From the NCBI GenBank assembly GCA_902601895.1, contig CACKOU010000004.1, positions 19,140 through 83,139 of the forward strand: a stretch of 64,000 nt of DNA, read 5' to 3'. How positions within the stretch are numbered: the first letter of the stretch is position 1; each line of letters opens with the position of its first letter. The translations under genes were made by a program, and so were the position numbers. Of this stretch, positions 7,426-55,056 are shown piece by piece. Source of the DNA: an uncultured Pelagibacteraceae bacterium (lineage in GTDB: Bacteria; Pseudomonadota; Alphaproteobacteria; Pelagibacterales; Pelagibacteraceae). Under the pieces are notes generated by a model, which made no database searches, was not told where the DNA came from, and saw nothing but the letters and a program-made list of their open reading frames with translations.

Positions 7426-7434
7426 AAATCAGAT

Positions 7435-7710
7435 TTACTTGTTAAATACTTCTTTAAGTGCTTTAGCAGGTAAAAACTTTACCTTTTGAGAAGCAGCGAT
7501 TTGGATTTGCTCTCCAGTTCTTGGATTACGTCCAATTCGGGCTTTTCTTTTAGCGACTTTATATGTACCAAAACCTGCAATCTTTACAGAATCGTCGTTT
7601 TTTAACGCATCTAGTATAGTATTCGTAATAGTATCAAAAGTACGCTCTGCATCAGCTTTACTTTGATTTAACGAACCAGCTAGTTTTGCTACTAATTGTT
7701 TTTTGTTCAT
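7435..7710 (-). CDS. hup: HU family DNA-binding protein
   Basis: MNKKQLVAKLAG..., GFGTYKVAKRKARIGRNPRTGEQIQIAAS. Confidence 0.96.
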   Translation of the reverse strand: MNKKQLVAKLAGSLNQSKADAERTFDTITNTILDALKNDDSVKIAGFGTYKVAKRKARIGRNPRTGEQIQIAASQKVKFLPAKALKEVFNK

Positions 7711-17764: not shown

Positions 17765-18181
17765 ATGTTAGATAAATTTAATGGAATAATATATTTAAGT
17801 ATTTTTATTGTACATTTTCTTGTTTACGCCGTTTACGCTTTCAGAACAGTAGTTGCTACAAAGTCGTTTTTAAATCAATACAATATAGATCACTCAGCAG
17901 CCGTAATGGTTAGATTTTTTGGGGCACCATTTATTGCATCTATTTTAGTGGCATTTTACATAATGTTAATTAAAGCAGATGGTTTAGCAGGAACATGGGG
18001 TTTCTTTACACTAATTTTTGCACAAAACGTTTTATATTTCTTAATCGGGATATATACAATATATGTCAATAAGCTTGGACATAACGAAAAAACAAATAGC
18101 GAAGGTGTCATTGCATCTGGAATTTTAACAGTGCTAAGTGGAATTCTTTGCTACGGTCTAGCTGATAAAATTTATATTTAA
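17765..18181 (+). CDS. Hypothetical membrane protein
   Basis: 138-aa ORF with four predicted TMs. Confidence 0.6.
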   Translation: MLDKFNGIIYLSIFIVHFLVYAVYAFRTVVATKSFLNQYNIDHSAAVMVRFFGAPFIASILVAFYIMLIKADGLAGTWGFFTLIFAQNVLYFLIGIYTIYVNKLGHNEKTNSEGVIASGILTVLSGILCYGLADKIYI

Positions 18182-19677
18182 CTTTTTTTTCTAAAAGTTG
18201 AAAAAATTTGCCAGCAAACAATTGTTATTGTTATCAATAATATTATTAGTGTTATAGGCCTATCCCATAAGAAATTAGGTGAACCATCACTTATTAAAAG
18301 TGATCTTCTCAGTGTTTCCTCCATAAGTCCTCCGAGTACAAAAGCTAATATTAAAGGTGGCATGGGAAAATCATATAGCCTTAAAAAAGTTGCAACTACA
18401 GCAATACCAATCATTAAAAAAATATCAAAATTATTAAAAGACATTAGATATATTCCTGTAACTGAAAAAAATAAAATCAAAGGAATTAAGTAGTTTCTAG
18501 GTACTGCTAAAATTCTAGCTATATAAGGAATTAAAGGTAAATTTAAAATCAAAAGCACAACCATACCAATGTACATTGACATAATAACAGACCAAAAAAT
18601 TTCAGGGTTTGTTTGATAAAGTCTTGGTCCTGGCTGAATACCAAATCCTAAAAGAGCTCCTAACATAACAGCTGTTGTTCCACTTCCAGGAATTCCTAAT
18701 GTTAGTAATGGTACAAAAGATCCAGAGCAAGCAGCATTATTTGCTGTCTCAGGTGCTGATAAACCATGAACGCTACCTTTTCCAAATTTTTGTTTTTCTT
18801 CCTCGTTTACATAGTTTCTTTCCATTCCATATGCTAAGAAAGATGCAATTGTAGCGCCTGCTCCAGGCAAAACACCAATTAAGAAACCAAGTATTGAGGA
18901 TCTAGGTATTGTTTTGGCCATTTTAATTGTTTCCTCTTTATTTACTTTAATTGATCCTAATTCTGTTAATGAGATTTGTTTTGCCGCTCTATTTGGATCT
19001 TTCCCTCTAAAAATAATTGTAAGCGCTTCACTCATTGCAAATGTAGCCATGACAATTAAAACAAAGCTTATTCCATCAGTTAAATTCATATTATTAAATG
19101 TGAACCTTGTAATATCTGACAATGAATCTTGACCAACTGTTGCTAACATTAATCCTAAAACTACCATCATCATTGCTTTTAAAAACTGTCCTTTAGATGA
19201 GAATGCAGAAATTGCAGTTAAACCTAAAATCATTAGTGCAAAATAGTCAGGTGACCTAAAGGCTAGACTTACTTTTGACAAACTGGGTGCTGCAACTAGT
19301 AAAAATATTGCAGAAATAGTTCCACCTGCAAATGAACTATAGGCTGCAATAGCCAAAGCTTTACCAGCTTTACCTTGTTGTGCCATTGGATAGCCATCAA
19401 ATGCTGTAGCAACAGTTCCTGGTATTCCAGGTGCATTTAACAAGATTGAAGAAGTAGATCCTCCAAATACCGCTCCATAGTAAACACCTGCCATTAAAAT
19501 TAGACCTGTTGATGGATCAAAGCCATAAGTAATTGGTATCATCAATGCAATTGCAGTCATTGGTCCAAGTCCTGGTAACATTCCAATTATTGTTCCAGCA
19601 AAACAACCAACCATCACCATTAATATATTCGTTAATGATAGCGCAGTTGATAATCCAATTAGTATTCCTTCGATCAT
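18178..19677 (-). CDS. tctA: Tripartite tricarboxylate transporter large permease
   Basis: GMLPGLGPMTAIALMIPITYG; SGSFVPLLTLGIPGSGTTAVMLGAL. Confidence 0.95.
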   Translation of the reverse strand: MIEGILIGLSTALSLTNILMVMVGCFAGTIIGMLPGLGPMTAIALMIPITYGFDPSTGLILMAGVYYGAVFGGSTSSILLNAPGIPGTVATAFDGYPMAQQGKAGKALAIAAYSSFAGGTISAIFLLVAAPSLSKVSLAFRSPDYFALMILGLTAISAFSSKGQFLKAMMMVVLGLMLATVGQDSLSDITRFTFNNMNLTDGISFVLIVMATFAMSEALTIIFRGKDPNRAAKQISLTELGSIKVNKEETIKMAKTIPRSSILGFLIGVLPGAGATIASFLAYGMERNYVNEEEKQKFGKGSVHGLSAPETANNAACSGSFVPLLTLGIPGSGTTAVMLGALLGFGIQPGPRLYQTNPEIFWSVIMSMYIGMVVLLILNLPLIPYIARILAVPRNYLIPLILFFSVTGIYLMSFNNFDIFLMIGIAVVATFLRLYDFPMPPLILAFVLGGLMEETLRRSLLISDGSPNFLWDRPITLIILLITITIVCWQIFSTFRKKS

Positions 19678-20144
19678 CCCATAACTCCAATATATTTTAA
19701 AAAAGGATCACGAAGATAAATGTTTAATAAACCGTGTAATAAATACATAAATGCAGCAACAAATGGAAAAGATAAAATAAACATCAGTCCCCATCTTCTT
19801 TCGCCTAAGAAATAGTAAGATGCAAAAAGAAATAAAGAAGTTGATATAAAATATCCAATTTTTAAAATTACAGCTGCATATATTAGAGAGATAACTATTA
19901 GATAGATAATGCTTTTATAATCTAAGTGTTTATGATTTACCTCTGTAGTAACTTTCTCAGGTAAAATTATTTTTAAACTCGATAAAATTATTCCTGCCCA
20001 ACCTAAGTATATTGGAAAAGTCCTAGCATTAAATGGTGCATTCTCATCAAATGCAAATACTTGAATGTTGTAAGCTGTGTATAGATAAAATACCGATAAA
20101 ACAAAAAAAAGCAGTGAGATAAATTTTGTAGGACTTATTCTCAC
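19674..20144 (-). CDS. tctB: Tripartite tricarboxylate transporter small permease (GTG start)
   Basis: TctB-like 4-TM protein between tctA and tctC; the only plausible start is GTG at 20144 (in-frame TAG upstream). Confidence 0.88.
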   Translation of the reverse strand: MRISPTKFISLLFFVLSVFYLYTAYNIQVFAFDENAPFNARTFPIYLGWAGIILSSLKIILPEKVTTEVNHKHLDYKSIIYLIVISLIYAAVILKIGYFISTSLFLFASYYFLGERRWGLMFILSFPFVAAFMYLLHGLLNIYLRDPFLKYIGVMG

Positions 20145-20150
20145 TGCTTT
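20103..20150 (-). terminator. Terminator-like hairpin after tctC that contains the tctB start codon
   Basis: Minus strand AAAGCAGTGAGA-(A)TAA...TTA-TCTCACTGCTTT followed by a T8 tract (20110-20103); perfect 12-bp outer stem. Confidence 0.8.
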
Positions 20151-20174
20151 ACATTCTTTAATAATCTATAAAGA

Positions 20175-21191
20175 TTATATTACTCCAAGTTTTTTCATAA
20201 GAGCTGTCATTTCAACTGTTTGTTTTTCTAAGAATGCATCAAATTTAGAGCCTGGATTATAAATATTTACCCATGCATTTCTTTTTCTAACAGCTTCCCA
20301 CTCTGGTGTCTTTTGAACATCACCAAGCATTTTAGAGATTTTGTTGTAGTCACTCATACTCATGCTTTTTGGTGCAAAGAAACCTCTCCAGTTAACAAAC
20401 TGAACATCATATCCTTGCTCTTTTAATGTTGGTGCTTCTGGTGCATCACCCACTCTCTCGGGAGCTGTGATACCGATTATTCTTACTTGATCTCTAGCAC
20501 CCATTACCTCACCTAAACCCGTTGAAAGTATTTGAGTTTCTCCAGATAAAAGTCCAGCAAGCGCTTTTCCGCCAGCATCATATGGAACATAAATCACATC
20601 GTTTGGATTTGCTCCAGCTGCTTGGAAAGCTAACGCACCAATTAAGTGGTCCATGCTTCCTCTTACAGATCCACCAGCCATTTTAATTGATTTTGGATCT
20701 TTTTGATATTGATCAACTGCATCTTTGAAATTTTTGATAGGTGAATTTTTTGCTACAACTATTGCACCATAATCTCCAATTACACCTGCAATTGGTTTAA
20801 CATCTTTATAAGATAATGTGCCAGTACCTTTTATATAACCTTTGTGTCTTGTAATAGATCTTAATACCAATGGTGTTGACTGAACTAAAACTGTATCTTT
20901 TGGAGCGTTATTGATTAGGTAAGCCAAAGCCTTACCACCTCCACCACCTGACATATTTTCAAATGATGCACTTTTCAAAAAACCAGCTTTTGTTAATGCT
21001 TCTCCAGTACCTCTAGCAGTTCCATCCCAACCACCACCAGCACCACCGCCAATTAAAAAATGTAATTTTTCAACTGCAAATGAACTTGTTGATGAAAATA
21101 GAAGGAAAGCAGAGAATAAAACTGAAATAAAAGTTTTAATTAGTTTCATTATTACCTCTCTTATTATATTTATGAAGTCATCATTAAACAT
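20175..21191 (-). CDS. tctC: Tripartite tricarboxylate transporter substrate-binding protein
   Basis: Signal peptide; GGGAGGGWDGTARG; VPYDAGGKALAGLLSGE. Confidence 0.93.
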   Translation of the reverse strand: MFNDDFINIIREVIMKLIKTFISVLFSAFLLFSSTSSFAVEKLHFLIGGGAGGGWDGTARGTGEALTKAGFLKSASFENMSGGGGGKALAYLINNAPKDTVLVQSTPLVLRSITRHKGYIKGTGTLSYKDVKPIAGVIGDYGAIVVAKNSPIKNFKDAVDQYQKDPKSIKMAGGSVRGSMDHLIGALAFQAAGANPNDVIYVPYDAGGKALAGLLSGETQILSTGLGEVMGARDQVRIIGITAPERVGDAPEAPTLKEQGYDVQFVNWRGFFAPKSMSMSDYNKISKMLGDVQKTPEWEAVRKRNAWVNIYNPGSKFDAFLEKQTVEMTALMKKLGVI

Positions 21192-28081: not shown

Positions 28082-28087
28082 AATATA

Positions 28088-28107
28088 GGTGGCTAATTAT
28101 AGCCACC
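28088..28107 (-). terminator. Hairpin between SBP and permease genes (attenuator-like)
   Basis: GGTGGCT-ataatt-AGCCACC, 7-bp perfect stem; no T-tract, directly before permease ATG at 28081. Confidence 0.55.
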
Positions 28108-28120
28108 CATAAATATTTTA

Positions 28121-28960
28121 TTACATAGAAGCGTCAAAACCAAAATGTTTAATAGCAAGCTTACTAATAATGCCATCATCTCTAGCTTTATCAATTGCTG
28201 CATTAAAATCATTTAGAAGTTTAGAGTCACCTTTTCTAATACCTACGCCAACTCCATTACCAAAATCTCCACCAGCAAATGTTGGTCCAGTTAATACAAC
28301 TGCTTTGCCAGATTTTTCTGCATAATCTGTAAAAGCAACTGCTGCAGCTAATGCTGCATCTATTCTACCAGCAGATAAATCTAAGTTTACTTCATCTTGA
28401 GTTTTGTAAGTTCTAATTTTTACATTACCCATTAAACCAGATTCTAAGAAGTTCTGGTGAATTGTTGCCGTTTGAACACCAATAGTTTTTCCTTTAAATG
28501 CTTTGGTCAATACATCTAGTGTTGCTTGTTCATCTGCACTCACATCAGATAAATTTATAGCTGACATTGTTTTAAGACCTTCGTTTTTCGATCCTTTCAT
28601 AACTGCTAAAGATGCAACTTCATCAGCATAACCTTGAGAAAAGTTTATTGTTTTCATTCTCTCACCAGTTATTGACATTCCAGCCATGATAGCATCAAAT
28701 TTTCTTGAGACTAAAGCAGGAATCATTCCATCCCAGTCTTGCTCAACAATAGTACAATCATGATTCATTATTTTACATAATTCATTTGCTAATTCGACTT
28801 CAAAGCCAATCAAATTTCCTGCTGAGTCTTTAGAGTTCCAAGGTGGATATGCACCTTCGGTTCCTATTTTAATCTGATCTGCAATAGAAGAAATTATTAG
28901 AAATGATGATATTAAAATACCAAGTCCTAATACTTTTAATTTTTTCATATTTTCCTCCAA
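28121..28960 (-). CDS. Polar amino acid ABC transporter substrate-binding protein
   Basis: IKIGTEGAYPPWNSKDSAGNLIGFEVELANELC. Confidence 0.93.
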   Translation of the reverse strand: MEENMKKLKVLGLGILISSFLIISSIADQIKIGTEGAYPPWNSKDSAGNLIGFEVELANELCKIMNHDCTIVEQDWDGMIPALVSRKFDAIMAGMSITGERMKTINFSQGYADEVASLAVMKGSKNEGLKTMSAINLSDVSADEQATLDVLTKAFKGKTIGVQTATIHQNFLESGLMGNVKIRTYKTQDEVNLDLSAGRIDAALAAAVAFTDYAEKSGKAVVLTGPTFAGGDFGNGVGVGIRKGDSKLLNDFNAAIDKARDDGIISKLAIKHFGFDASM

Positions 28961-47005: not shown

Positions 47006-47947
47006 ATGAAAAAAATAATTAGTTTCATTTTAGGAAGTTTATTTGCTCTAAATTTAACAATCACAGCAGCAAACACTGCTGCGAACGAAGTTAGAGTTGC
47101 ATACTTTCTAGAGTGGCCAAGTCCAAATTTAGAGGACATGCAAAAAAAAAATTTTGCTAAAGCTTTAGGAGTTCCAGTAAAATGGACAAACTTCACAAAT
47201 GGTGGAGCAATGACAGATGCAATGTTAGCAGGAGATATTGATATTTCTTACTCACAAGGTTTAGTACCATTTATTAATGCTGTAAAATCAAATGCACCTA
47301 TCAAATTAGTTGATATTGCAATGGAATACGGAATGGGTGGAACAACTTGTGTAACATCTAATGCATCAGGAATAACAAAAGCGAACGCAACAGAATTAGA
47401 GGGTAAAAAAGTTGCTGTTCCGTTAGGAACTATGGCTGAGTACGTTTTCGACGAAAGTATGAAAGTTGTCGGAGCTGATAGAAGCAAAATGGATATTATT
47501 CAAATGGACCCTGAAGAAGGTGCGGCTGCATTAGTAAGTGGAGATGTAGTAATGGCATGTCTATTTGGTGGTAATTCTATCAAAGCTGCAGTTGCTGTAG
47601 GATCAAGACTTTTAACTGTTCAAGAAGCAAGAGATGCAGGTATTTTAGGAATAGATATTACATCTGTAACAGACAAGTTTATGAAGGAAAATCCTGGAAT
47701 GTTGAGAACTTTTATTGAAGTAACTCATGAAGCAAATGAAAGATATAGAAATGGAAAAAGTGATATGAATTCTATGTCAAAAGCTTCAGAGATGAAAATT
47801 GCTGATATGAAAGACACTTTAAGTGGTTTCAAATTCTTAACTCCAGAAGAAACTAAAAAATCTATGGAAAGCGGAAACTTAGATGCATTCTTAAAAGGAA
47901 TGGGAACTCCAGGTGGAGCAGTAGACACTAGTTTCTTACCTTTATAA
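47006..47947 (+). CDS. tauA: Taurine-type ABC transporter substrate-binding protein
   Basis: Signal peptide; RVAYFLEWPSPNLE; GGAMTDAMLAGDIDISYSQGLVPF; AGGAGAT-type SD before ATG. Confidence 0.9.
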   Translation: MKKIISFILGSLFALNLTITAANTAANEVRVAYFLEWPSPNLEDMQKKNFAKALGVPVKWTNFTNGGAMTDAMLAGDIDISYSQGLVPFINAVKSNAPIKLVDIAMEYGMGGTTCVTSNASGITKANATELEGKKVAVPLGTMAEYVFDESMKVVGADRSKMDIIQMDPEEGAAALVSGDVVMACLFGGNSIKAAVAVGSRLLTVQEARDAGILGIDITSVTDKFMKENPGMLRTFIEVTHEANERYRNGKSDMNSMSKASEMKIADMKDTLSGFKFLTPEETKKSMESGNLDAFLKGMGTPGGAVDTSFLPL

Positions 47948-47969
47948 TTTAAAGATTAGAATAATTAAA

Positions 47970-48002
47970 TAGGCGCCAATTTTATTGGTGCCTATTTTTT
48001 TA
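47970..48002 (+). terminator. Intrinsic terminator between tauA and tauB
   Basis: TAGGcGCCAAT-ttt-ATTGGtGCCTA followed by T-run. Confidence 0.92.
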
Positions 48003-51812: not shown

Positions 51813-54010
51813 TATCCAAAATTTCCCTGTAATATCCCTTCTGTTTGTTCTCTTCTCCCTAATTTACGTTTACCTATTATTAATTGCATTAATGTTATTG
51901 TAAATAACATAACAACAATTAATGCAGATGAGTAAACAATTGCTAGACCATAATCATTGTTTTCTAATCTTCCTAAAATATATGAAACTGCTAAATCATA
52001 ATTAGCACTAACAAGGAATATAACCGCACTAATTGCTGTCATTGCTCTAACAAAACTAAAAACTAAAGAAGCAGTAATTGCAGGCTTAAGCAACGGAAGA
52101 ATTACATTCCTAAATGTTTGAGAACTAGATGCATTTAATGTTGATGATGCTTCATCTAAATGAGGATCTAATTGATTCATTGAAGCTATGCCTGCCCTAA
52201 CCCCAACTGGCATATTTCTAAATACAAAAGCGATTACTAAAATAATTCCTGTTCCTGTAAGTTCAAGTGGCGGAACATTAAACGCAAAAACGTAACTAAC
52301 ACCAATAACACTTCCAGGTATTGCAAAACTTAACATTGTACCGAATTCGAAAGCATTTTTTCCTTTAAACTTATGTCTTGTAAGAAGATATGCTGTTAAA
52401 ATACCTATTGCAGCAGTAGGAAATGATGAAATTAATGCTATTGCAAAAGTAGTGTTAAAAGAATTCCACGCGGTACCAGTCCACAAAATTCCTCTTTCCT
52501 TAACCCATTCAACACTAAATGCTTCAACATAATGTCTTAACGTAAAACTATGATCGACACCCCACATCTCTACAAATCCACCAAACATAATCATTATATA
52601 AATTATCAATGTAAGGAGTGCCCAAGGTAGAACAGTTGAATAAATTATCCACTTAGTATTATTTGGTAATTCAGGATGAACTCCACTATCACCTTTCCCA
52701 GAAATTGAAATATATGATTTTTTTCCCAACCATTGGTTCTGAAGATAAAATACTACCAGAACAACGGTTAATAAAATCATTGCTAATATTGCAGCTTTAG
52801 TTTCATCATACTGTGCACCCACAATTGCAAAGAATATTTCTGTAGATAAAACATCATATTCGGCACCTAGTACAAGTGGATTTCCGAAATCAGCTAAGCT
52901 TTCAATAAAGCCAAGCAAAAATGCATTCGCAATTCCAGGTCTCATTAAAGGCAATGTAACAGTTTTAAAAACTTGCCATTTTGAAGCTCTCAATGTTTGT
53001 GAAGCCTCTTCCATTGCAGGACTTACACTTTCAACAACTCCTATTAAAACTAAAAAAGCAATTGGAGTAAAAGCAAGAGTTTGTGCAAACCATATTCCTG
53101 GTAAACCATAAATCCATCTCGAGGGCTCTATCTCGAAAGCCCATTCAAGAAAAGAACTTACGACTCCCGTTCTACCAAATAAAATTATTATTGCTAAACC
53201 AATTACAAATGGAGGAGTTATGATTGGTAAAACAGATAAAATTCTAATTGTTTTTTTTAATTTAAAACTTGTTCTTGCAATTAATAAAGCAAAACCTAAA
53301 CCCAAAATTGTTGATGAGAAAGCTGTAAGTGTTCCCATAGTAACAGTGTTCCAAAAAACACCACATGCATAATCACTATATAGACAATCAAGACCCCAAA
53401 TTCCTTTATTAAATATTTTGGTTGAAAAATTACTAATTTCATATCCACCCTCTGTGCCTTTAAAGGCAACAGCAAACATTCTAAAAATAGGAAAAAAAAC
53501 GAAAGTTGAAACTAGAATAATTATGCTTCCTATACTTCCTACAATAAAATTGTCTCCATTCAACCACCCACGCGAGGAAAGCCCATGTGTAATATAAAAA
53601 ATAAATGTAGAGCATAAAAGAACTGCACCAGACCCTACTCCAAATTGATTTTCTACATCACCAAAAATCGATTGAAAGATTTCAAAATTCCACCCTCTTA
53701 TGCCAATTGAAAACCCCTGAAGAATAAAATAAAAAATACCAAACAATCCTGAGTACAAAAAAATTTTGGAATAAATAGGATTATTCTGATTTAATTTTAA
53801 AGTTGATAATGGAAAAAATAAAGGAACAATTAAAGGAAGAAGCCAATATTTTTTATTTATAAATACCTGCGGTAATACAGAACCGTAATCTTCTAAAGAA
53901 TATTCTAAAATCCAGTTTATTGAGAAAAACCCGTCACCTGTTACATACCATGGAAATATTAGGAAACCCAATACTCCGATGAGCATCCAACAGATAACGA
54001 GTCCTCTCAT
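51812..54010 (-). CDS. fbpB: Iron(III) ABC transporter permease (fused, two BPD modules)
   Basis: Two EAA-like loops: EEASQTLRASKWQVFKTVTLPLMRPGI and DEASSTLNASSSQTFRNVILPLLKPAI. Confidence 0.93.
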   Translation of the reverse strand: MRGLVICWMLIGVLGFLIFPWYVTGDGFFSINWILEYSLEDYGSVLPQVFINKKYWLLPLIVPLFFPLSTLKLNQNNPIYSKIFLYSGLFGIFYFILQGFSIGIRGWNFEIFQSIFGDVENQFGVGSGAVLLCSTFIFYITHGLSSRGWLNGDNFIVGSIGSIIILVSTFVFFPIFRMFAVAFKGTEGGYEISNFSTKIFNKGIWGLDCLYSDYACGVFWNTVTMGTLTAFSSTILGLGFALLIARTSFKLKKTIRILSVLPIITPPFVIGLAIIILFGRTGVVSSFLEWAFEIEPSRWIYGLPGIWFAQTLAFTPIAFLVLIGVVESVSPAMEEASQTLRASKWQVFKTVTLPLMRPGIANAFLLGFIESLADFGNPLVLGAEYDVLSTEIFFAIVGAQYDETKAAILAMILLTVVLVVFYLQNQWLGKKSYISISGKGDSGVHPELPNNTKWIIYSTVLPWALLTLIIYIMIMFGGFVEMWGVDHSFTLRHYVEAFSVEWVKERGILWTGTAWNSFNTTFAIALISSFPTAAIGILTAYLLTRHKFKGKNAFEFGTMLSFAIPGSVIGVSYVFAFNVPPLELTGTGIILVIAFVFRNMPVGVRAGIASMNQLDPHLDEASSTLNASSSQTFRNVILPLLKPAITASLVFSFVRAMTAISAVIFLVSANYDLAVSYILGRLENNDYGLAIVYSSALIVVMLFTITLMQLIIGKRKLGRREQTEGILQGNFG

Positions 54011-54018
54011 TTAATTCC

Positions 54019-55056
54019 TTATCTAGGAATTACAGAAACATCGTTATCCCATTTGGATAACAAACTCGCTCTAGTACTTTTATCTCCATAAACTTTAAAA
54101 TTATAATCAATTAAGTTTATTGTTGATAAGTCTGGAGCATCAGGATCAGCTTTTGCTTTAGTATTAGATGGCACTTGCAAAGATTTTCCTGAAGTGAAGA
54201 CCATAGTTTGAATAGCGGGACTTAAAGCCCAGTCATAAAACTTTTTAGCTTCCTTCATATTTCTTGCACCTGCAATAATACTCATAGATCCAACTTCATA
54301 ACCAGTTCCTTCAGCTGGAGAGACCGTAACAACCGGCAAACCTTTTTTTGTTTGTTTCACACCATCATGTTGGAAACAAATACCGATTAAGTTTTCACCT
54401 CTACCAGTTGCCTTAATTGGTGCAGAACCAGATTTAGTATATGTATTTATGTTTGCATGAAGTTTTTTCATGTAATCCCAACCTTTATCTTCTCCAAATA
54501 TTTGAAGAATGGTAGCTAAGGTGGTGTAAGCAGTTCCAGATGAGTTTGGATTTGCTACTTGTATTTCACCTTTATATATTGGTTTTGTTAAATCCATCCA
54601 TGATTTTGGAGCTGGAAGACCTTTTTTTGCTAAAAGATCTTTGTTGTATCCAAAACCTAATGCACCAACATAAATTCCTACTGATTTAAAATCAGCATTT
54701 TTTGCTTGGTTCTGAGCTGCAGGTAATAAATCATTAAAATGAACAGATTTATATTTCTCAGTTAAATTTTCTTGTGCTGCAGTTAAATGTGGATCACCTG
54801 TTCCACCAAACCAAACATCTCCTTTTGGATTTGATGCTTCTGCTTTTATTTTTGCAAAAGTTTCACCACTACTTGCTCTTGTCATAGCAACTTTTGTTCC
54901 AGTTTCTTTTTCATAAGCTTGTTCAAGCATTTCACAAACGTCTATTTCAACACTGCAATATAAAGTTAGTTTTGCAGCTGAAGCTTTATTTGTGATACCG
55001 AAAAGTGTTAATGAAAGAACTAGAGCCATAGAAGCTACTTTAAGTATATTTTTCAT
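54019..55056 (-). CDS. fbpA: Iron(III) ABC transporter substrate-binding protein
   Basis: Signal peptide; LTLYCSVEIDVCEMLEQAYEKETGTKV; GDVWFGGTGDPH. Confidence 0.92.
   Translation of the reverse strand: MKNILKVASMALVLSLTLFGITNKASAAKLTLYCSVEIDVCEMLEQAYEKETGTKVAMTRASSGETFAKIKAEASNPKGDVWFGGTGDPHLTAAQENLTEKYKSVHFNDLLPAAQNQAKNADFKSVGIYVGALGFGYNKDLLAKKGLPAPKSWMDLTKPIYKGEIQVANPNSSGTAYTTLATILQIFGEDKGWDYMKKLHANINTYTKSGSAPIKATGRGENLIGICFQHDGVKQTKKGLPVVTVSPAEGTGYEVGSMSIIAGARNMKEAKKFYDWALSPAIQTMVFTSGKSLQVPSNTKAKADPDAPDLSTINLIDYNFKVYGDKSTRASLLSKWDNDVSVIPR

What the first reader, a model, noticed from the sequence alone, without database searches (positions are those of the whole stretch)
20103..20175. 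Terminator-like hairpin that contains the tctB GTG start codon
Minus strand after tctC reads AAAGCAGTGAGAATAAgtcctacaaaatTTATCTCACTGCTTTTTTTT: a 12-bp perfect outer stem, inner extension with a 1-nt bulge, then T8. That is an intrinsic-terminator layout, yet the only plausible tctB start (GTG at 20144) lies in its 5' stem, so the hairpin and T-tract are coding. It could set high SBP versus low permease expression, with ribosome entry at tctB opening the stem. This would be a coding-embedded attenuator.
Basis: partly seen in the sequence, partly recalled or inferred. Interest (0 to 1): 0.72.

Follow-up and report, generated by a model that had tools for sequence, protein, structure and literature searches.

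The report
RNA hairpin hiding tctB's start codon
In SAR11 ocean bacteria an RNA hairpin built partly from protein-coding letters hides the start of a membrane-transporter gene just after the gene for its nutrient-catching protein; it is very probably how these cells make much more catcher than channel, and the same layout recurs at other nutrient transporters in their genomes.

Summary
The hairpin is real, at the stated coordinates, and under selection as RNA. The window is SAR11. In 55 non-redundant tctC-tctB junctions the 10-bp core stem holds (nine pairs in 55/55, the tenth in 54/55). GTG is the start in 100/100. Codon 11 is CTG in 99/100, although CTG is about 1% of Leu codons elsewhere in these genes. 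Synonymous bases covary with their partners, and only 3 of 16,500 synonymous recodings fold as well. In other genera the stem also swallows the Shine-Dalgarno. tctB has the most occluded start of 63 ORFs in the window and of 1,141 in a nearly complete relative.

It is not a one-off. SBP-to-next-gene junctions carry the strongest intercistronic hairpins in SAR11. In the window the three most occluded starts are all first permease genes after an SBP. A paralogous TTT operon has a canonical terminator inside the tctB coding region.

Best reading: a stoichiometry element keeping TctB/TctA low relative to TctC, mainly by hiding the tctB start; partial termination may add. Hairpins after SBP genes are known for ABC importers; the start-embedded form looks like a new variant. 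No expression data were available.

The parts
20175..21191 (-). tctC, periplasmic substrate-binding protein of a tripartite tricarboxylate transporter (TTT); stop TAA 20177-20175
   Evidence: Pfam TctC 2.3e-14; ORF list
20161..20178 (-). P1: small hairpin ATAATCT-TTAT-AGATTAT that encloses the tctC stop codon
   Evidence: Fold; 32/55 homologues have a stem of at least 5 bp from the stop codon, and the last tctC wobble base pairs with its partner in 29 of 32 (A-T 21, C-G 4, T-A 3, T-G 1)
20139..20150 (-). P2 5' arm AAAGCAGTGAGA, containing the tctB GTG
   Evidence: core pairs kept in 54-55/55
20108..20119 (-). P2 3' arm TCTCACTGCTTT, tctB codons 9-13
   Evidence: CTG at codon 11 in 99/100
20120..20138 (-). 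P2 inner stem (20137-20133 with 20124-20120), bulge 20138, loop 20132-20125
   Evidence: codon 2 / codon 9 covariation
20103..20110 (-). T8 tract, coding (Leu-Phe-Phe); 20110-20108 pair in P2
   Evidence: tract interrupted in most relatives
19674..20144 (-). tctB, small membrane subunit; GTG start in P2
   Evidence: Pfam TctB 3e-15; start conserved 100/100
18178..19677 (-). tctA, large membrane subunit; ATG overlaps the tctB end, so it may depend on tctB translation (inferred from position)
   Evidence: Pfam TctA 2.1e-151; 4-nt overlap
28084..28111 (-). Same kind: hairpin between an SBP_bac_3 gene (28121-28960) and its permease gene (start 28081); second most occluded start in the window
54012..54032 (-). 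Same kind: hairpin TAATTCCT-AGATA-AGGAATTA; stop codon of the SBP_bac_6 gene (54019-55056) at loop/arm, Shine-Dalgarno of the permease gene (start 54010) in the 3' arm; third most occluded start
47967..47997 (+). Related: intergenic 14-bp hairpin plus T-tract between an NMT1-type SBP gene (47006-47947) and ABC ATPase (48030)

Best explanation
P2 (helped by P1) is an RNA stoichiometry element of the tctCBA operon. Once tctC is transcribed, P2 folds over the ribosome-binding region, start codon and first codons of tctB. Free 30S subunits then cannot start there: opening -12..+6 costs about 15-26 kcal/mol against a genome median near 4. tctB, and tctA which overlaps its end, are therefore made only at a low rate, by ribosomes that arrive before P2 closes or by the few that come over from tctC, whose stop codon lies 22-35 nt upstream inside P1. 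TctC, which has no such block, accumulates in excess. Where the T-tract is long, as here, some RNA polymerases may also stop at P2, and the hairpin may protect the 3' end of tctC mRNA. Shown: the structure is selected, it covers the start, and the placement recurs at SBP junctions. Inferred: the effect on expression, its direction, and the route by which tctB is translated.
For: Core stem kept across all homologues. -5/+36 swaps G-C for A-U at least 4 times on a tree, with 3/3 independent pairs going the same way. Codon 9 Ile wobble follows codon 2: AGA-ATC 11/11, AAT-ATA 16/16, AAG-ATC 7/7. 3 of 16,500 synonymous recodings fold as well. CTG at codon 11 in 99/100 against 14/1172 and 11/1133 elsewhere. 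AGGAGG or GGAAG pairs with codons 12-14 in sister genera. A divergent family with a TTG start hides its Shine-Dalgarno under CTC CTC CTT codons with unrelated sequence. tctB start is the most occluded of 1,141 ORFs in G026 and of 63 in the window, third of 785 in G063. SBP junctions in G026 carry the strongest junction hairpins, p = 8e-10. Distant Alphaproteobacteria have a hairpin just after tctC in 11 of 14. SAR11 is reported to pack its periplasm with SBPs (PMC8437039).
Against: No transcript, ribosome-profiling or protein data for these operons were available. In distant Alphaproteobacteria the hairpin does not cover tctB's start, and a SAR11 paralog has a terminator inside tctB with a fairly open start. 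The ancestral role could therefore be termination or mRNA protection, with occlusion a by-product of genome compaction. The SBP list in G026 was partly seeded from top-ranked junctions, and start calls there are longest-ORF.
Confidence: 0.7

Rival explanations
1. P2 works mainly as a partial intrinsic terminator (coding-embedded attenuator): a fraction of RNA polymerases stop at the T-tract, giving short tctC mRNA and less tctBA mRNA.
For: 12-bp stem followed by T8 in the window. Experimental precedent after ABC SBP genes in Clostridia, where weak T-tracts still terminate 20-96% (PMC9045158). A paralogous SAR11 TTT operon has a 14-bp stem plus T8-9 inside tctB codons 7-19, kept in ten loci. 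Half of the other SBP hairpins in G026 have long T-tracts.
Against: T-tract interrupted in g2/g4 genera (TTCTTTGTTTT); codon 13 TTC in 38/100 against 18% background. In those genera the T's pair with Shine-Dalgarno purines. Termination alone needs no hairpin over the start codon.
Confidence: 0.3
2. P2 (and P1) protect the 3' end of tctC mRNA after cleavage in tctBA (selective mRNA stability), raising TctC rather than lowering TctB.
For: Strong hairpins right after SBP genes, many without a T-tract. Stem stability affects upstream mRNA in the Clostridia study (PMC9045158).
Against: Does not explain why the stem is centred on the start codon and takes in the Shine-Dalgarno, in two families with unrelated sequences.
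Confidence: 0.15
3. A regulated switch: a protein, small RNA, metabolite or temperature opens or closes P2.
For: Near-invariant core stem; P1 next to P2 could be part of a switch.
Against: Loop not conserved; no Rfam match; no alternative pairing seen; one copy per genome, no second operon shares the motif.
Confidence: 0.08
4. Chance or protein-coding constraint only.
For: Leu-Leu-Phe-Phe is a natural start of a membrane helix and T-rich in an A+T-rich genome (window G+C 0.298).
Against: Synonymous sites carry the signal.
Confidence: 0.01

Closest known systems
[quoted passage not shown] 2022, PMC9045158)
   Same: Hairpin directly after the SBP gene and before the translocator genes; SBP expected in excess; T-tracts often weak.
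   Different: There intergenic, ABC family, tested as terminators, no mention of start codons or ribosome-binding sites. Here a TTT transporter, with the hairpin over the next gene's start and made of coding sequence.
Translationally coupled gene pairs with inhibitory structure over the downstream ribosome-binding site (review PMC12548453; the MS2 replicase start hairpin is a further example, from memory)
   Same: Start region of the downstream gene buried in RNA structure; translation of the upstream gene is the likely opener.
   Different: Spacing is 22-35 nt, longer than the spacing at which coupling is efficient, and a second hairpin sits on the stop codon; the review reports that structure just after the stop codon lowers coupling.
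Rhodobacter puf operon pufA-pufL intercistronic hairpin (from memory)
   Same: Hairpin between highly and weakly expressed genes of one operon, near the downstream ribosome-binding site.
   Different: Pigment-protein operon; the main known role is mRNA stability; not tested here.
Candidate structured RNAs of Pelagibacter ubique (Meyer et al. 2009, PMC2704228)
   Same: Same bacterial group; single-hairpin motifs, one (rhtB element) with a poly-U tract in half of its examples.
   Different: The passages and table rows read concern intergenic regions; 'tct' does not occur in the paper.

Membership tests
Intrinsic (Rho-independent) terminator | Stable hairpin followed by a U-rich tract | tested here: met
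   12 bp plus T8 in the window
Intrinsic (Rho-independent) terminator | U-tract maintained by selection in homologues | tested here: not met
   Codon 13 TTC 38/100 against 18% background; tract interrupted in g2/g4 genera
Intrinsic (Rho-independent) terminator | Transcripts end at the U-tract | not testable with these tools
   No RNA data
SBP-downstream stoichiometry stem-loop (Wu et al. type) | Hairpin directly after the SBP gene, before the membrane genes | tested here: met
   13 SBP junctions in G026 all in the top 65 of 831
SBP-downstream stoichiometry stem-loop (Wu et al. type) | SBP transcript in excess over translocator | not testable with these tools
   No expression data; SAR11 SBP abundance only from the literature (PMC8437039)
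Start-sequestering translational control element | Start codon and Shine-Dalgarno base-paired in the stable fold | tested here: met
   Opening energy 19.6 kcal/mol in the window, 15-26 in homologues; Shine-Dalgarno paired in g2/g4. In the window's own clade no clear Shine-Dalgarno exists
Start-sequestering translational control element | Pairing kept by compensatory change | tested here: met
Translationally coupled pair | Downstream translation depends on upstream translation | not testable with these tools
   Needs reporter fusions
Known Rfam RNA family | Match above the gathering score | tested here: not met
   Best hit 26.8 bits against a threshold of 55

The most novel reading that the evidence does not exclude
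Streamlined marine bacteria have moved the usual hairpin after an SBP gene into the next gene's start codon and first codons, again and again and with unrelated sequences. One coding-embedded hairpin then sets SBP-to-membrane-subunit stoichiometry at two levels at once: partial transcription termination and start-codon occlusion.
Probability: 0.4. Interest if true: 0.75.

Novelty: new variant of a known kind. Interest (0 to 1): 0.62.

Why it matters
SAR11 cells are among the most abundant on Earth and live by filling their periplasm with binding proteins. How a genome with few regulators sets SBP-to-permease ratios is not settled. This gives a concrete, sequence-readable answer that can be tested with short reporter constructs, and it shows synonymous codons in a membrane protein constrained, most likely, by the expression ratio of its operon.

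Tried and rejected
Rfam: no match. Motif copies elsewhere in the genome: a covariance model of P2 finds one strong site per genome, at tctB; the next best hit at another site has E = 0.004. Terminator scan: did not list the hairpin because of its loop and stem limits. Shine-Dalgarno G at -8 with TTC at codon 13 looked like covariation, but on the tree it is lineage-bound (independent pairs mostly uninformative), so it is not used as compensatory evidence. RNAalifold's covariation term is small (-0.72), because the core barely varies and the bulge shifts between clades; hence the codon-based tests. A second start-embedded hairpin (SBP_bac_3 gene o1000 in G026) is kept in part of g1 but not in g4, so it is only a lead. 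Three literature searches on SAR11 terminators, TTT terminators and start-overlapping internal terminators gave nothing on point.

Full report
WHAT IS THERE. The window comes from a SAR11 (Pelagibacteraceae) genome; near-identical loci are labelled so. On the minus strand lie tctC (20175-21191), tctB (19674-20144, GTG start) and tctA (18178-19677), the three parts of a tripartite tricarboxylate transporter. It folds at -24.3 kcal/mol including a small upstream hairpin, z = -6. The upstream hairpin (P1, 20178-20161) encloses the tctC stop codon.

IT IS SELECTED AS RNA. 150 homologous junctions reduce to 100 distinct and 55 non-redundant ones. The core pairs from -6..+4 with +28..+37 hold in 54-55 of 55, although the TctB proteins are mostly only 63-76% identical between clades. 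All 100 start with GTG. Codon 11 is CTG in 99/100 and codon 12 is CTC or CTT in 100/100, while in the rest of tctB Leu is TTA in 680 of 1172 and CTG in 14, and in tctC CTG is 11 of 1133. The synonymous third base of Ile codon 9 follows codon 2: AGA with ATC 11/11, AAT with ATA 16/16, AAG with ATC 7/7, AAA with ATT 13/19. The -5/+36 pair switches G-C and A-U at least four times on a tree of tctC and the rest of tctB, and in 3 of 3 independent comparisons both sides move together. Recoding codons 2-16 at random with the same amino acids and natural codon usage gave an equal or better fold in 3 of 16,500 trials. Protein constraint and chance are therefore excluded. P1 is weaker but also pairs across change: the last tctC wobble base pairs with its partner in 29 of 32 junctions that have the stem, as A-T, T-A, C-G or T-G.

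WHAT THE STEM COVERS. In genera g2 and g4 the junction has a clear Shine-Dalgarno (AGGAGG or GGAAG), and the stem often extends to 14-16 bp by pairing it with codons 12-14 (CTC TTC TTT). In a different family of the class (TctC about 70%, TctB 38% identical; TTG start) an unrelated sequence does the same: the Shine-Dalgarno is covered by codons CTC CTC CTT. Opening the region -12..+6 costs 19.6 kcal/mol in the window and 15-26 in homologues. That is the highest of 63 ORFs in the window (median 4.9), the highest of 1,141 ORFs in 1.2 Mb of relative G026 (median 3.7, 99th percentile 11.0), and third of 785 in 0.8 Mb of G063. Starts in these surveys are longest-ORF calls, so single ranks are approximate.

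IT BELONGS TO A WIDER PATTERN. In G026, same-strand gene junctions were ranked by their best local hairpin. Thirteen SBP-type junctions all fall in the top 65 of 831, eleven of them in the top 20 (p = 8e-10; 4e-9 against junctions with gaps of at least 25 nt). Twelve of the thirteen have Pfam or homology support as SBPs; one (o259) is an SBP by context only. Part of the list was seeded from the top of the ranking; a blind screen for secreted proteins followed by a same-strand gene added no obvious SBP with a weak hairpin, judged by eye. In the window, four of the top five of 35 junctions follow SBPs, and the three most occluded starts (tctB, 28081, 54010) are all first permease genes after an SBP. 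In G063 four of the five most occluded starts follow an SBP gene; one of those four encodes a short-chain dehydrogenase and not a permease, and one was not checked by Pfam. Distant Alphaproteobacteria have a G+C-rich hairpin right after tctC in 11 of 14 cases (ten at p of 0.015 or less), there clear of the tctB start. A paralogous SAR11 TTT operon, also in this genome, carries a 14-bp stem plus T8-9 inside the tctB coding region, with changes such as CAAAC/GTTTG to CGAAC/GTTCG.

HOW IT PROBABLY WORKS. Because the stem hides the start, the simplest effect is a low rate of tctB initiation, and of tctA, whose ATG overlaps the tctB end. Spacing of 22-35 nt between stop and start, with structure on the stop codon, should also make hand-over from tctC ribosomes inefficient; the review of coupling reports both trends (PMC12548453). 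The result would be TctC in excess, which suits cells said to pack the periplasm with SBPs (PMC8437039). A terminator role is possible in the window's own clade, with T7-T8, and has direct precedent downstream of ABC SBP genes (PMC9045158). The T-tract, however, is not favoured: codon 13 is TTC in 38 of 100 against 18% TTC elsewhere. I put occlusion as the main conserved effect (0.7), with termination as the main effect at 0.3; the two are not exclusive. Nothing here measures expression.

STATUS AGAINST KNOWN THINGS. It works like the SBP-downstream stem-loops of Wu et al. and like start-sequestering structures of coupled genes. It meets the structural features of both; the functional features (3' ends, ratios, dependence on tctC translation) could not be tested. 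It has no Rfam match and occurs once per genome. I found no report of such hairpins in TTT operons or in SAR11 in the library searched. I rate it a new variant of a known kind.

Noticed in passing
window 28084-28111 (-) and 54012-54032 (-): Two more SBP-to-permease junctions with hairpins over or against the permease start; at 54010 the SBP stop codon lies at the loop/arm and the permease Shine-Dalgarno in the 3' arm, a layout a terminating ribosome would open.
   Followed up: partly
L359-L371, just after tctC (own genome G000:C31): A paralogous TTT operon has a small hairpin around the tctB ATG, then a canonical terminator (14 bp plus T8-9) inside codons 7-19 of tctB, conserved with pairing changes.
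   Followed up: partly
G026 (L228-L287), junctions o254, o259, o622, o729, o756, o766, o817, o896, o1000, o1104, o1134, o1159: Every recognised SBP gene followed by a same-strand gene has a strong hairpin after it; about half have T-tracts.
   Followed up: partly
L288-L317, downstream of an SBP_bac_3 gene: A GTG start in an A+T-rich hairpin with the Shine-Dalgarno paired to CTC CTG codons in one genome (L294); kept in part of g1, lost in g4.
   Followed up: partly
L187 (G168:C18): tctC lacks its usual C-terminus and tctB has an internal stop, yet the P2 hairpin is intact; a decaying operon or an assembly error.
   Followed up: no
window 7434-7710 (-): Strong hairpin (-29.1 kcal/mol) in the 149-nt gap after an HU-type DNA-binding gene; also top-ranked in G063.
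   Followed up: no
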